Shown: positions 44,652-46,382 of the stretch, piece after piece
How positions within the stretch are numbered: position 1 is the first letter of the stretch
Layout: every line of letters starts with the position of its first letter
NCBI RefSeq assembly: GCF_032397745.1
Contig: NZ_CP135921.1
Span: 4,762,501-4,826,500, forward strand
Length of the DNA: 64,000 nucleotides
DNA from: Bradyrhizobium prioriisuperbiae
GTDB lineage: Bacteria; Pseudomonadota; Alphaproteobacteria; Rhizobiales; Xanthobacteraceae
Direction of reading: 5' to 3'
Position numbers and translations under genes: made by a program
The notes under the pieces: generated by a model
The model's database searches: none
What the model saw: only the letters and a program-made list of their open reading frames with translations
What the model was told of the DNA's origin: nothing

Positions 44652-44746
44652 CAAGGTGCGTTATCCGGCTCGCGGTCGTCGGGCCGACGTTGATGGATGC
44701 GGATATCTCTTGCCAAGGCATGCGGCAGCATGGCATCACGCTGCCC

Positions 44747-44797
44747 ATGACCAGCATGATGACCCTCGCTCGTTGCAATTGGTGGCGCTCCTTTTAA
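44747..44797 (+). CDS. Attenuator leader peptide with tandem Trp codons
   Basis: A 16-residue reading frame, MTSMMTLARCNWWRSF, has two consecutive TGG codons (44780-44785) and stops at 44797, 124 nt before a tryptophanyl-tRNA synthetase gene. Tryptophan is the rarest residue, so WW in a peptide of this length is a strong sign of a trp leader. In-frame ATGs also exist at 44693, 44720, 44756 and 44759, and no strong ribosome-binding site marks one of them. The start is therefore uncertain while the end is not. The first hairpin strand begins at the base after the second Trp codon. Confidence 0.65.
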   Translation: MTSMMTLARCNWWRSF

Positions 44798-44866
44798 GGA
44801 GCGGCACGTCGTCATGTCCTGATGTTTCATTGACCGTCGCCGCCGTGTTCGGGCAGGCGAAGTTTT
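44786..44866 (+). promoter_or_regulatory. Putative transcription attenuator of trpS
   Basis: Four strands can pair in the classical way. Strands 1:2 are CGCTCC(TT) at 44786-44793 with (AA)GGAGCG at 44796-44803. Strands 2:3 (antiterminator) are GCGGCACG at 44801-44808 with CGT-GCCGC at 44835-44843, one bulged C. Strands 3:4 (terminator) are CGCCGCC at 44838-44844 with GGC-GGCG at 44852-44859, one bulged A, followed by AAGTTTT to 44866. A ribosome stalled at the two Trp codons would cover strand 1 and favour 2:3, preventing termination. The second SD-proximal pairing CTCC/GGAG (44900-44903 with 44910-44913) could add translational control. Confidence 0.6.
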
Positions 44867-44920
44867 GATCTCTTTGGCAATCGTGTCCGGCGCGGCGGCT
44901 CCATCCCTTGGAGACCGAAA

Positions 44921-45946
44921 ATGCCCGTTGCCCCCGACAATCGCCCCATCATCCTGACCGGCGACCGCACTACTGGTCCGCTGCATCTCGGCCACTATGC
45001 CGGATCGCTGAAAAATCGCGTCCGACTGCAATCGACCCATCGGCAGTTCCTGCTGCTCGCCGATACCCAGGCGCTCACCGATAATGCGCACGATCCCGAT
45101 AAGATTCGCCGCAACGTGCTTGAGGTAGCGCTGGATTATCTCGCGGTTGGCATCGATCCGGCGCTGACCACGATCTGCGTACAGTCCGCCTTGCCGGCGC
45201 TGGCGGAGTTGACGCTGCTCTATCTCAACTTTGTTACCGTCGCTCGACTCGAGCGCAACCCGACCATCAAGGATGAGATCCAGGCGCGAGGATTCGGGCG
45301 CGATATCCCGGCGGGCTTCCTGTGTTATCCGGTGGCGCAGGCCGCCGATATCACGGGCTTCAAGGCCACCGTGGTTCCGGTCGGCGAGGATCAGGCGCCG
45401 CTGATCGAACAGACCAACGAAATCGTGCGTCGGCTGAATCATCAGATTGGCCGTGATGTTCTGCTGGAGGCGAAGGCGTTATTCGCAGAGGTGGGCCGGC
45501 TGCCGGGTGTCGACGGCAAGGCGAAGATGAGCAAGTCGCAAGGCAATGCGATCCTGCTCTCCGCCTCGCCCAACGGCATCAGCAACGCGGTGCGGCGCAT
45601 GTACACCGATCCCGCCCATCTGCGTGCTACCGACCCCGGTAAGGTAGAGGGCAATGTCGTCTTCACCTATCTCAACGCGTTCGACGAGGATCGGTTTGCG
45701 GTCGCGGAACTGAAGGCGCAATATCGAAGGGGTGGTCTCGGCGACGTGGCGGTCAAGCGCAGGTTGGAAGATCTGCTGCAGCATGTGCTAGCGCCAATTC
45801 GTGCGCGGCGGGAACAATTCGGCCGTGATCCGGGCTTTGTGATCGATCTATTGCGGCGGGGAACACGGACCGCACGCGAACGCACCCAGGCGACGCTCGA
45901 CGAGCTGCGCGGCGCGCTCGGGCTGTCAGTGCTCCCACCTGCATGA
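44921..45946 (+). CDS. trpS: Tryptophanyl-tRNA synthetase, auxiliary (second) type
   Basis: This is a 341-residue class I synthetase. The HIGH motif reads [16 protein letters not shown] near residue 20 and the KMSKS motif is intact in [10 protein letters not shown] near 203. The forms [27 protein letters not shown] and [12 protein letters not shown] place it with the TrpRS lineage common in Firmicutes and known as auxiliary, sometimes indolmycin-resistant, copies. The usual alphaproteobacterial enzyme has GxQPTGxLHLGNYLG. It charges tRNA-Trp in the cytoplasm. Its SD (GGAG at 44910-44913) is preceded by the putative attenuator, so it is probably induced by Trp starvation or TrpRS inhibition. 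Confidence 0.93.
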
Positions 45947-46019: not shown

Positions 46020-46382
46020 ATGGCAACAGCAGCACGTGAAACCGGAACTCTGATCGGCAGTGACAAAGTCGAGGGAACCGCGGTGTACGGCGCCGACGGC
46101 GAAAAGATCGGCTCGATCGAGCGGGTGATGATCGACAAGGTCAGCGGCAAGGTGTCCTACGCCGTGCTCAGCTTCGGCGGCTTTCTCGGCATCGGCGACG
46201 ATCATTATCCGCTGCCGTGGTCATCGCTGAAGTACAACACCGAACTCGGCGGTTATCAGTCGATGATCCCGGTGGAGAAACTCGAGAAGGCGCCGAGCTA
46301 CGCCACCGAGTCCGAGTGGAACTGGAACGACACCGCCCGCGCCCGCAGCGTGAATTCGTACTATGGGGTTGCTATGGTGTAG
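46020..46382 (+). CDS. PRC-barrel domain protein
   Basis: This 120-residue protein has a PRC-barrel pattern (GTAVYGADGEKIGSIERVMIDKVSGKVSYAVL, then GIGDDHYPLPWSSLKY). It resembles the stress-related PRC-barrel proteins common in rhizobia. AGGGAG precedes the ATG at 46020. No signal peptide is seen. Its function is unknown; it is monocistronic, with a palindromic repeat after it. Confidence 0.85.
   Translation: MATAARETGTLIGSDKVEGTAVYGADGEKIGSIERVMIDKVSGKVSYAVLSFGGFLGIGDDHYPLPWSSLKYNTELGGYQSMIPVEKLEKAPSYATESEWNWNDTARARSVNSYYGVAMV

What the first reader, a model, noticed from the sequence alone, without database searches (positions are those of the whole stretch)
44747..44920. Complete trp-type attenuator in front of an auxiliary tryptophanyl-tRNA synthetase gene
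Seen: a short peptide with two adjacent Trp codons; a hairpin whose first strand begins at the next base (44786-44793 with 44796-44803); a competing pairing of strand 2 with strand 3 (44801-44808 with 44835-44843); and a 3:4 hairpin ending in TTTT (44838-44866). Known: this is the logic of ribosome-mediated attenuation, and an auxiliary trpRS of Streptomyces is controlled in this way. Inference: the cell makes this second-type TrpRS when charged tRNA-Trp is low or the main TrpRS is inhibited, for example by indolmycin-like compounds. I know of no such description for an alphaproteobacterial trpS.
Basis: partly seen in the sequence, partly recalled or inferred. Interest (0 to 1): 0.85.

Follow-up and report, generated by a model that had tools for sequence, protein, structure and literature searches.

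The report
Tryptophan-starvation switch for backup synthetase
In front of a spare copy of the enzyme that loads tryptophan onto its tRNA, this bacterium carries a short tryptophan-reading sensor that is kept across many related bacteria, looks set to switch the spare enzyme on when loaded tryptophan-tRNA runs short, and has an extra RNA pairing that the textbook version lacks.

Summary
In detail: leader ORF MTSMMTLARCNWWRSF* (44747-44797), the three pairings, and a TrpRS-II-type gene (44921-45946) that is the second trpS of this genome. It is not chance: 37 of 391 family genomes have this gene (E 1e-60 or better) and all 37 carry a WW leader; relatives in alpha-, beta- and gammaproteobacteria carry it too. 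In 46 genomes the leader goes with having another trpS (33/1/4/8, p 1.5e-5); most genomes without it rely on this TrpRS alone. Trp-codon attenuation of a backup TrpRS is very likely.

In the window's own group the 3:4 hairpin mostly lacks a U-tract (8 of 34 have one, against 18 of 18 and 16 of 22 elsewhere). And a fifth strand before the start codon (44889-44899) pairs with strand 3 and its loop; this pairing covaries and overlaps a hairpin holding the Shine-Dalgarno. I propose that after a stall strand 3 passes from strand 2 to strand 5, opening the start site: a translational or dual output. Modelling supports that step only weakly. A second copy precedes a BASS-family transporter. Nothing was tested at the bench.

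The parts
44710..44715 (+). putative -35 element TTGCCA of the leader promoter (a poor -10, GCATCA or CATCAC, follows at 44733-44739)
   Evidence: 65 of 75 loci have a best site with TTG in the -35; the -10 ends 6 or 7 bases before the leader ATG in 56 of those 65; strict consensus scan finds no promoter here, so the -10 is weak.
44747..44797 (+). leader ORF MTSMMTLARCNWWRSF*, probably read from a leaderless mRNA (start at or next to the ATG; inferred)
44780..44785 (+). tandem Trp codons (sensor)
   Evidence: WW in 38 of 80 relatives, a single W or WC in at least 7 more
44786..44793 (+). strand 1
   Evidence: 1:2 paired in 95.4% of cells in 24 sequences
44796..44808 (+). strand 2 (44796-44803 pairs with 1; 44801-44808 pairs with 3)
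44835..44849 (+). strand 3 and its loop (44835-44843 pairs with 2; 44838-44844 with 4; 44839-44849 with 5)
44852..44866 (+). strand 4 and weak T-run (TTTT 44863-44866)
44889..44899 (+). strand 5, complementary to strand 3 and loop (11 pairs incl. G-U), 3' end about 20 bases before the trpS ATG
44897..44916 (+). hairpin GGCTCC...GGAGACC that holds the trpS Shine-Dalgarno GGAG and overlaps strand 5
44921..45946 (+). auxiliary tryptophanyl-tRNA synthetase gene, TrpRS-II type, 341 aa

Best explanation
A tryptophan-starvation switch on a backup TrpRS. SHOWN from sequence: a conserved Trp-codon leader with promoter spacing that puts the transcript start at its ATG, helices 1:2, 2:3, 3:4, an additional covarying helix 3:5, and a Shine-Dalgarno hairpin that overlaps strand 5. 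INFERRED: with enough Trp-tRNA the leader ribosome runs to the stop codon and covers strand 2; 3:4 forms first, strand 5 then closes on the Shine-Dalgarno, and in lineages with a U-tract transcription also ends; trpS is off. When Trp-tRNA is short (tryptophan starvation, or the main TrpRS blocked) the ribosome stalls on WW and covers strand 1; 2:3 keeps strand 3 out of 3:4; once strand 5 is made it takes strand 3, which keeps strand 5 from closing the Shine-Dalgarno, and the backup TrpRS is made. In this genome the output is probably mainly translational or dual. My confidence is about 0.9 for Trp-codon attenuation of a backup TrpRS and about 0.45 for the strand-5 hand-off as the output step.
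For: Leader conservation: WW in 38 of 80 relatives and at least 7 more with one Trp codon or WC; 30 of 30 loci of the genus and family searches, L083-L112; 37 of 37 family genomes with the gene. RNA-model scan of 391 family genomes, not anchored on trpS: 24 hits over 50 bits, 22 before TrpRS-II genes, 2 before a BASS transporter (several of the 22 were in the model and match by construction). Leader goes with a second trpS: 33 leader/two, 1 leader/one, 4 no leader/two, 8 no leader/one of 46 genomes, Fisher p 1.5e-5; sister contrasts Cupriavidus basilensis (leader, two trpS) against five Cupriavidus (none, one), and Herbaspirillum against Herminiimonas. 3:5: 94.5% of cells paired, covariation 0.295 against 0.164 shuffled (0 of 500) and at most 0.108 when slid; partner permutation within groups: B 0 of 5000, C 0 of 5000, A 4.5%. 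Promoter spacing.
Against: Thermodynamic states are nearly equal and the Shine-Dalgarno opens only modestly in the 3:5 state (mean 0.23 against 0.16-0.17 in the window group; in the window itself 0.05 against 0.00). 2:3 and 3:4 cores do not covary in the window group. The SD hairpin covaries only modestly (0.255 against 0.204; slid versions reach 0.196), its stability against shuffles is often ordinary, and the SD is unpaired in 2 of the 8 group C loci printed. On average 0.22 (B), 0.18 (C) and 0.33 (A) of foreign partners of the same group fit strand 3 as well as its own strand 5. Four genomes have two trpS and no leader, one has a leader and one trpS found. No expression data.
Confidence: 0.72

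Rival explanations
1. Classical transcriptional attenuation only: 3:4 is an intrinsic terminator, 2:3 the antiterminator, and strand 5 has no role in switching.
For: Sister groups have textbook terminators: at least 5 T of 8 after the hairpin in 18 of 18 (group A) and 16 of 22 (group C); the window keeps TTTT and just reaches 5 of 8. trpE of the same genome has a WW leader MNTVISPSRLWWPTF and a GC hairpin with TTTT.
Against: Only 8 of 34 of the window's group, the window among them, reach 5 T of 8; the 3:4 hairpin is nevertheless kept. Does not explain the covarying 3:5 pairing or its place 16-23 bases before the start codon in 30 of 34 of the group.
Confidence: 0.3
2. Rho-dependent attenuation: leader translation and the hairpin decide whether Rho loads on the untranslated stretch 44800-44920.
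For: No U-tract in 26 of 34 of the group; the stretch lies after the leader stop and before the trpS start.
Against: The region folds stably; does not predict 3:5 covariation. I did not search for Rho-binding sites.
Confidence: 0.12
3. The leader ORF is a by-product or reinitiation aid and not a Trp sensor.
For: Leader genes without marked regulatory codons are numerous in bacteria (PMC4833913, passages).
Against: Trp codons sit at the same place in leaders that otherwise differ, and 8 of the 9 genomes where this is the only trpS found have no leader.
Confidence: 0.03

Closest known systems
trp attenuator of rhizobia (trpLE(G); S. meliloti rnTrpL/peTrpL, B. japonicum peTrpL MSTAVAPARLWWRTS; PMC7298713, passages)
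   Same: Trp-codon leader at the very 5' end of the transcript in S. meliloti, terminator/antiterminator logic; own genome has a WW leader before trpE
   Different: controls a synthetase gene; adds strand 5 and an SD hairpin; U-tract mostly missing in the window's group
Streptomyces trpS attenuators (trpS2 of S. avermitilis, PMC1262725, passages; auxiliary indolmycin-resistant trpRS1 of S. coelicolor and its attenuation, recalled, papers not held)
   Same: attenuator before a second TrpRS gene
   Different: other phylum; strand 5 and SD hairpin not mentioned in the passages seen; homology between the leaders not tested
Caulobacter trpS small leader CDS (PMC4117421, passages)
   Same: putative small leader CDS on an alphaproteobacterial trpS mRNA, from ribosome profiling
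   Different: no Trp codons or structure stated in the passages; which trpS type it is was not checked
Deinococcus TrpRS II (PDB 1yi8, 2a4m)
   Same: closest solved relatives by sequence; share R at the Bs Q9 place and Q at the Bs H43 place
   Different: nitric-oxide-synthase partnership not looked for here

Membership tests
ribosome-mediated trp-type transcription attenuator | short leader ORF with tandem regulatory codons near its end | tested here: met
ribosome-mediated trp-type transcription attenuator | mutually exclusive 1:2, 2:3, 3:4 helices, first strand right after the regulatory codons | tested here: met
   present and conserved (95.4%, 91.6%, 93.3% of cells paired in 24 sequences); no compensatory support for the 2:3 and 3:4 cores within the window group
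ribosome-mediated trp-type transcription attenuator | 3:4 is an intrinsic terminator with U-tract | tested here: inconclusive
   window TTTT after AAG; 8 of 34 in its group, 18 of 18 and 16 of 22 in the others have at least 5 T of 8
ribosome-mediated trp-type transcription attenuator | read-through rises on tryptophan starvation and needs the Trp codons | not testable with these tools
   needs Term-seq and reporters
leaderless rhizobial trpL-type leader | transcription starts at the leader ATG | tested here: inconclusive
   promoter spacing fits in 56 of 65 loci with a TTG -35, of 75 scanned; no start-site data; window -10 is weak
TrpRS II type synthetase | sequence closest to Deinococcus TrpRS II, distinct from the main bacterial TrpRS | tested here: met
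   1yi8 E 3e-117; 31-32% identity to the genome's main TrpRS
indolmycin-resistant auxiliary TrpRS | resistance of the enzyme | not testable with these tools
   Q instead of the His whose change to Asn gives resistance in B. stearothermophilus (PMC4899734, passages) in 115 of 118 relatives, 3 not matched by the search pattern; suggestive only
Rfam families | covariance-model match | tested here: not met
   none at gathering score in the window; one chance-level hit at E 0.77

The most novel reading that the evidence does not exclude
A five-strand relay attenuator: the stalled leader ribosome decides whether strand 3 is locked by strand 4 or handed on to strand 5 beside the start codon, so one Trp-codon sensor drives transcription termination in some lineages and start-site opening in others, with the window's group caught after losing the terminator. 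The same module also sits on a BASS-family transporter, which would make that transporter a tryptophan-related importer.
Probability: 0.4. Interest if true: 0.78.

Novelty: new variant of a known kind. Interest (0 to 1): 0.63.

Why it matters
It would show how bacteria keep a backup synthetase silent until the main one fails, explain why the leader is missing where the backup has become the only TrpRS, and offer a natural series in which an attenuator goes from stopping transcription to gating translation. The covarying fifth strand gives a directly testable addition to the textbook trp attenuator, and the copy before a BASS-family gene predicts a function for an unassigned transporter.

Tried and rejected
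Equilibrium folding with ribosome masks does not by itself show a clear on/off change of the Shine-Dalgarno; I kept the covariation result and marked the output step as inference. A strict promoter and terminator scan found neither element of the leader; the promoter claim rests on spacing across relatives, and that script chose, among in-frame ATGs, the one with the best site, which favours good spacing where a leader has several ATGs. Known RNA families: none. The main trpS of this genome has no leader with tandem Trp codons. 2:3 and 3:4 cores were counted for covariation and gave none in the window group.

Limits and dropped rows: the SD-hairpin script stopped with an error inside group C; A (18), B (34) and 8 of group C were printed. 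L059 (WW in an unrelated frame) was counted as leaderless. L073 has no recognisable strand-3 core and was left out of the pairing and U-tract counts (74 of 75 loci used). Two loci with a very long distance to the gene were left out (72 of 74). The tree used 107 of 139 rows. Single-W leaders were looked for only in the loci printed, so the count of 7 is a lower bound. The RNA model comes from 24 group-B-like leaders; above 50 bits it finds 22 of the 37 TrpRS-II leaders of the family, missing nearly all group A ones; its 10 hits below 34 bits include a trpE leader (L170), a group A leader (L173) and hits that look like chance. L002 keeps strands 2 to 5 but its leader has decayed. In the class search 33 of 387 genomes matched: of 7 loci at 67% identity or more besides the window's, 6 have WW and 1 a single W; of 22 at 57% or less, 1 has WW (L140).

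Literature: seven searches on trpS, attenuation, indolmycin and leaders and two on trpL and BASS, in an open-licence library only, showed no description of this element; Lopatovskaya 2010 and two Vecchione/Sello papers are not held and could contain part of it.

Full report
Observation. The gene behind them encodes a 341-residue tryptophanyl-tRNA synthetase (Pfam PF00579) closest among solved structures, by sequence, to Deinococcus TrpRS II (1yi8, E 3e-117). The genome has a second TrpRS, 31% identical, whose upstream stretch has no leader with tandem Trp codons, and a trpE with its own leader MNTVISPSRLWWPTF and a GC hairpin followed by TTTT.

Conservation. In the 80 relatives, 38 have a WW leader and at least 7 more a leader with one Trp codon or WC; 18 of the 35 others are Acinetobacter. 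In the window's family 37 of 391 genomes hold the gene at E 1e-60 or better and all 37 have a WW leader: the window and 30 loci; G121 and G369 through (G369 read by eye on the other strand); G389, G054, G011 and G039. 36 of these 37 show a further TrpRS match; the exception, G312, is 81% complete. WW leaders were also seen in 6 of 7 plasmid-collection loci fetched, chosen from 88 records with a match: Agrobacterium rubi, Rhizobium ruizarguesonis, Methylocystis rosea, Roseibium aggregatum, Variovorax and the gammaproteobacterium Photobacterium; the R. leguminosarum copy has none.

Leader and backup status. In 46 genomes searched through their loci (a 47th, L035, was not held), 33 have a leader and another trpS, 1 has a leader and only one trpS found (L048), 4 have no leader and two trpS (L002, L043, L057, L061), 8 have no leader and only this trpS; Fisher p 1.5e-5 (the single-W leader of L053 and the WC leader of L015 count as leaders). 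These genomes are related, so the p value overstates independence. On the protein tree (107 rows) the leader label needs 11 changes (shuffled 21.9); genomes with this trpS alone and no leader are two Acinetobacter tested, five Cupriavidus next to C. basilensis (leader, two trpS), and Herminiimonas next to Herbaspirillum (leader, two trpS).

Promoter. This points to transcripts that begin at the leader ATG, as stated for S. meliloti trpL (PMC7298713, passages). The window's -10 is poor and a strict scan finds nothing.

Helices. I grouped 75 loci: A (18, WWLA-type and kin, alpha), B (34, WWRS-type, alpha, including the window), C (23, mostly beta). At least 5 T of 8 follow the 3:4 hairpin in 18 of 18 A, 8 of 34 B and 16 of 22 C. 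In a 24-sequence alignment of B-like leaders (A1) 1:2 is paired in 95.4% of cells, 2:3 in 91.6%, the 3:4 core in 93.3%; the last two show no compensatory signal over shuffles.

Strand 5. Downstream of the hairpin, ending 16-23 bases before the trpS ATG in 30 of 34 group B loci, lies a strand complementary to strand 3 and to the loop of 3:4; its fit beats dinucleotide shuffles by a mean z of -3.3, -3.7 and -3.7 in A, B and C. In A1 it pairs in 94.5% of cells with covariation 0.295 (shuffled 0.164, 0 of 500; slid at most 0.108); 14 of 15 cells changed on both sides lie in two columns of the loop, which 3:4 does not use. Strand 3 fits its own strand 5 better than strands 5 of other leaders of the group: permutations at least as good, B 0 of 5000 (23 representatives), C 0 of 5000 (21), A 4.5% (7); single foreign partners fit as well in 0.22, 0.18 and 0.33 of cases. 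Strand 5 overlaps the 5' arm of a hairpin in which at least two Shine-Dalgarno bases are paired in all 52 A and B loci (overlap absent in L022), though its stability against shuffles runs from z +0.2 to -4.8; it covaries modestly.

Mechanism. See best explanation. Computed states with strand 3 in 2:3, 3:4 or 3:5 lie within a few kcal/mol of each other (group B means -46.3, -47.7, -46.5; 33 loci), which suits a switch, but the Shine-Dalgarno opens only a little more in 3:5 (0.23 against 0.16-0.17; window 0.05 against 0.00). So the hand-off is inferred from covariation and position, not shown by modelling.

Scan not anchored on trpS. A covariance model of the element run on 391 family genomes gave 24 hits over 50 bits: 22 before TrpRS-II genes, two of them decaying (G121 split, G369 truncated), and 2 before a BASS-family transporter, in this genome and in G352, which shows no TrpRS-II. 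Several of the 22 were in the model. The transporter protein has no Pfam or NCBIfam hit itself; its relatives are named BASS or Na+-dependent transporters by some sources. Of 30 loci fetched for it and its relatives (50 of 244 genomes matched), this genome's copy and 11 loci of one other genus have WW leaders, one more of that genus a single-W variant, and 17 none.

Residues. R stands at the B. stearothermophilus Q9 place in 118 of 118 relatives at 60% identity or more, Q at the H43 place in 115 (3 not matched by the pattern); change of H43 to Asn gives indolmycin resistance in the Bacillus enzyme (PMC4899734, passages). The placement of Q9 and H43 comes from alignments and my own count; Q9 as a contact is recalled. 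This fits, but does not show, a role against TrpRS inhibitors; tryptophan limitation is the simpler trigger.

Print. Streptomyces trpS attenuators (PMC1262725, passages) and a Caulobacter trpS small leader CDS (PMC4117421, passages) are the nearest reports found. The nine literature searches listed under Tried and rejected showed nothing on this element; key older papers were not held.

Noticed in passing
G000:C1:1138004-1139133 minus strand (L145, L177); also L169 in G352: A second copy of the attenuator (leader MTYRAAFTSWWRSCPERHIVMS*, strand 3, strand 5 with matching loop) stands before a BASS-family membrane transporter; same arrangement in G352 with leader MDDCLTFTASRWWRSV*.
   Followed up: partly
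L178-L181, L183-L185, L189, L193, L195, L197: In another genus of the family the same transporter has a different conserved leader of the form MIERVTSLRRRWWRSVSCNGIW*; by eye the WW codons can pair with the CGC codons before them.
   Followed up: partly
L043; L211 (R. leguminosarum plasmid pRL23b4): Leaderless copies of this trpS; on pRL23b4 it starts 28 bases after an annotated FAD-dependent oxidoreductase gene, and L043 has a similar protein end upstream by eye.
   Followed up: no
G121 (L165, L218) and G369 (L162): TrpRS-II gene split or truncated while the leader and attenuator still match the model well: the backup gene may be being lost.
   Followed up: no
G798 (genome of L023, Bradyrhizobium valentinum): Two TrpRS-II copies (74% and 75% identical to the query) besides the main TrpRS.
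   Followed up: no
plasmid collection: 45 of 88 matching records hold a trpS at 60-80% identity to this one (43 are below 60%), in many genera; some records are of chromosome size.
   Followed up: partly
window 46020-46382: Next gene downstream on the same strand encodes a short protein (MATAARETGTLIGSDKVEGTAVYG...), no NCBIfam hit; looks like a PRC-barrel protein from memory.
   Followed up: no
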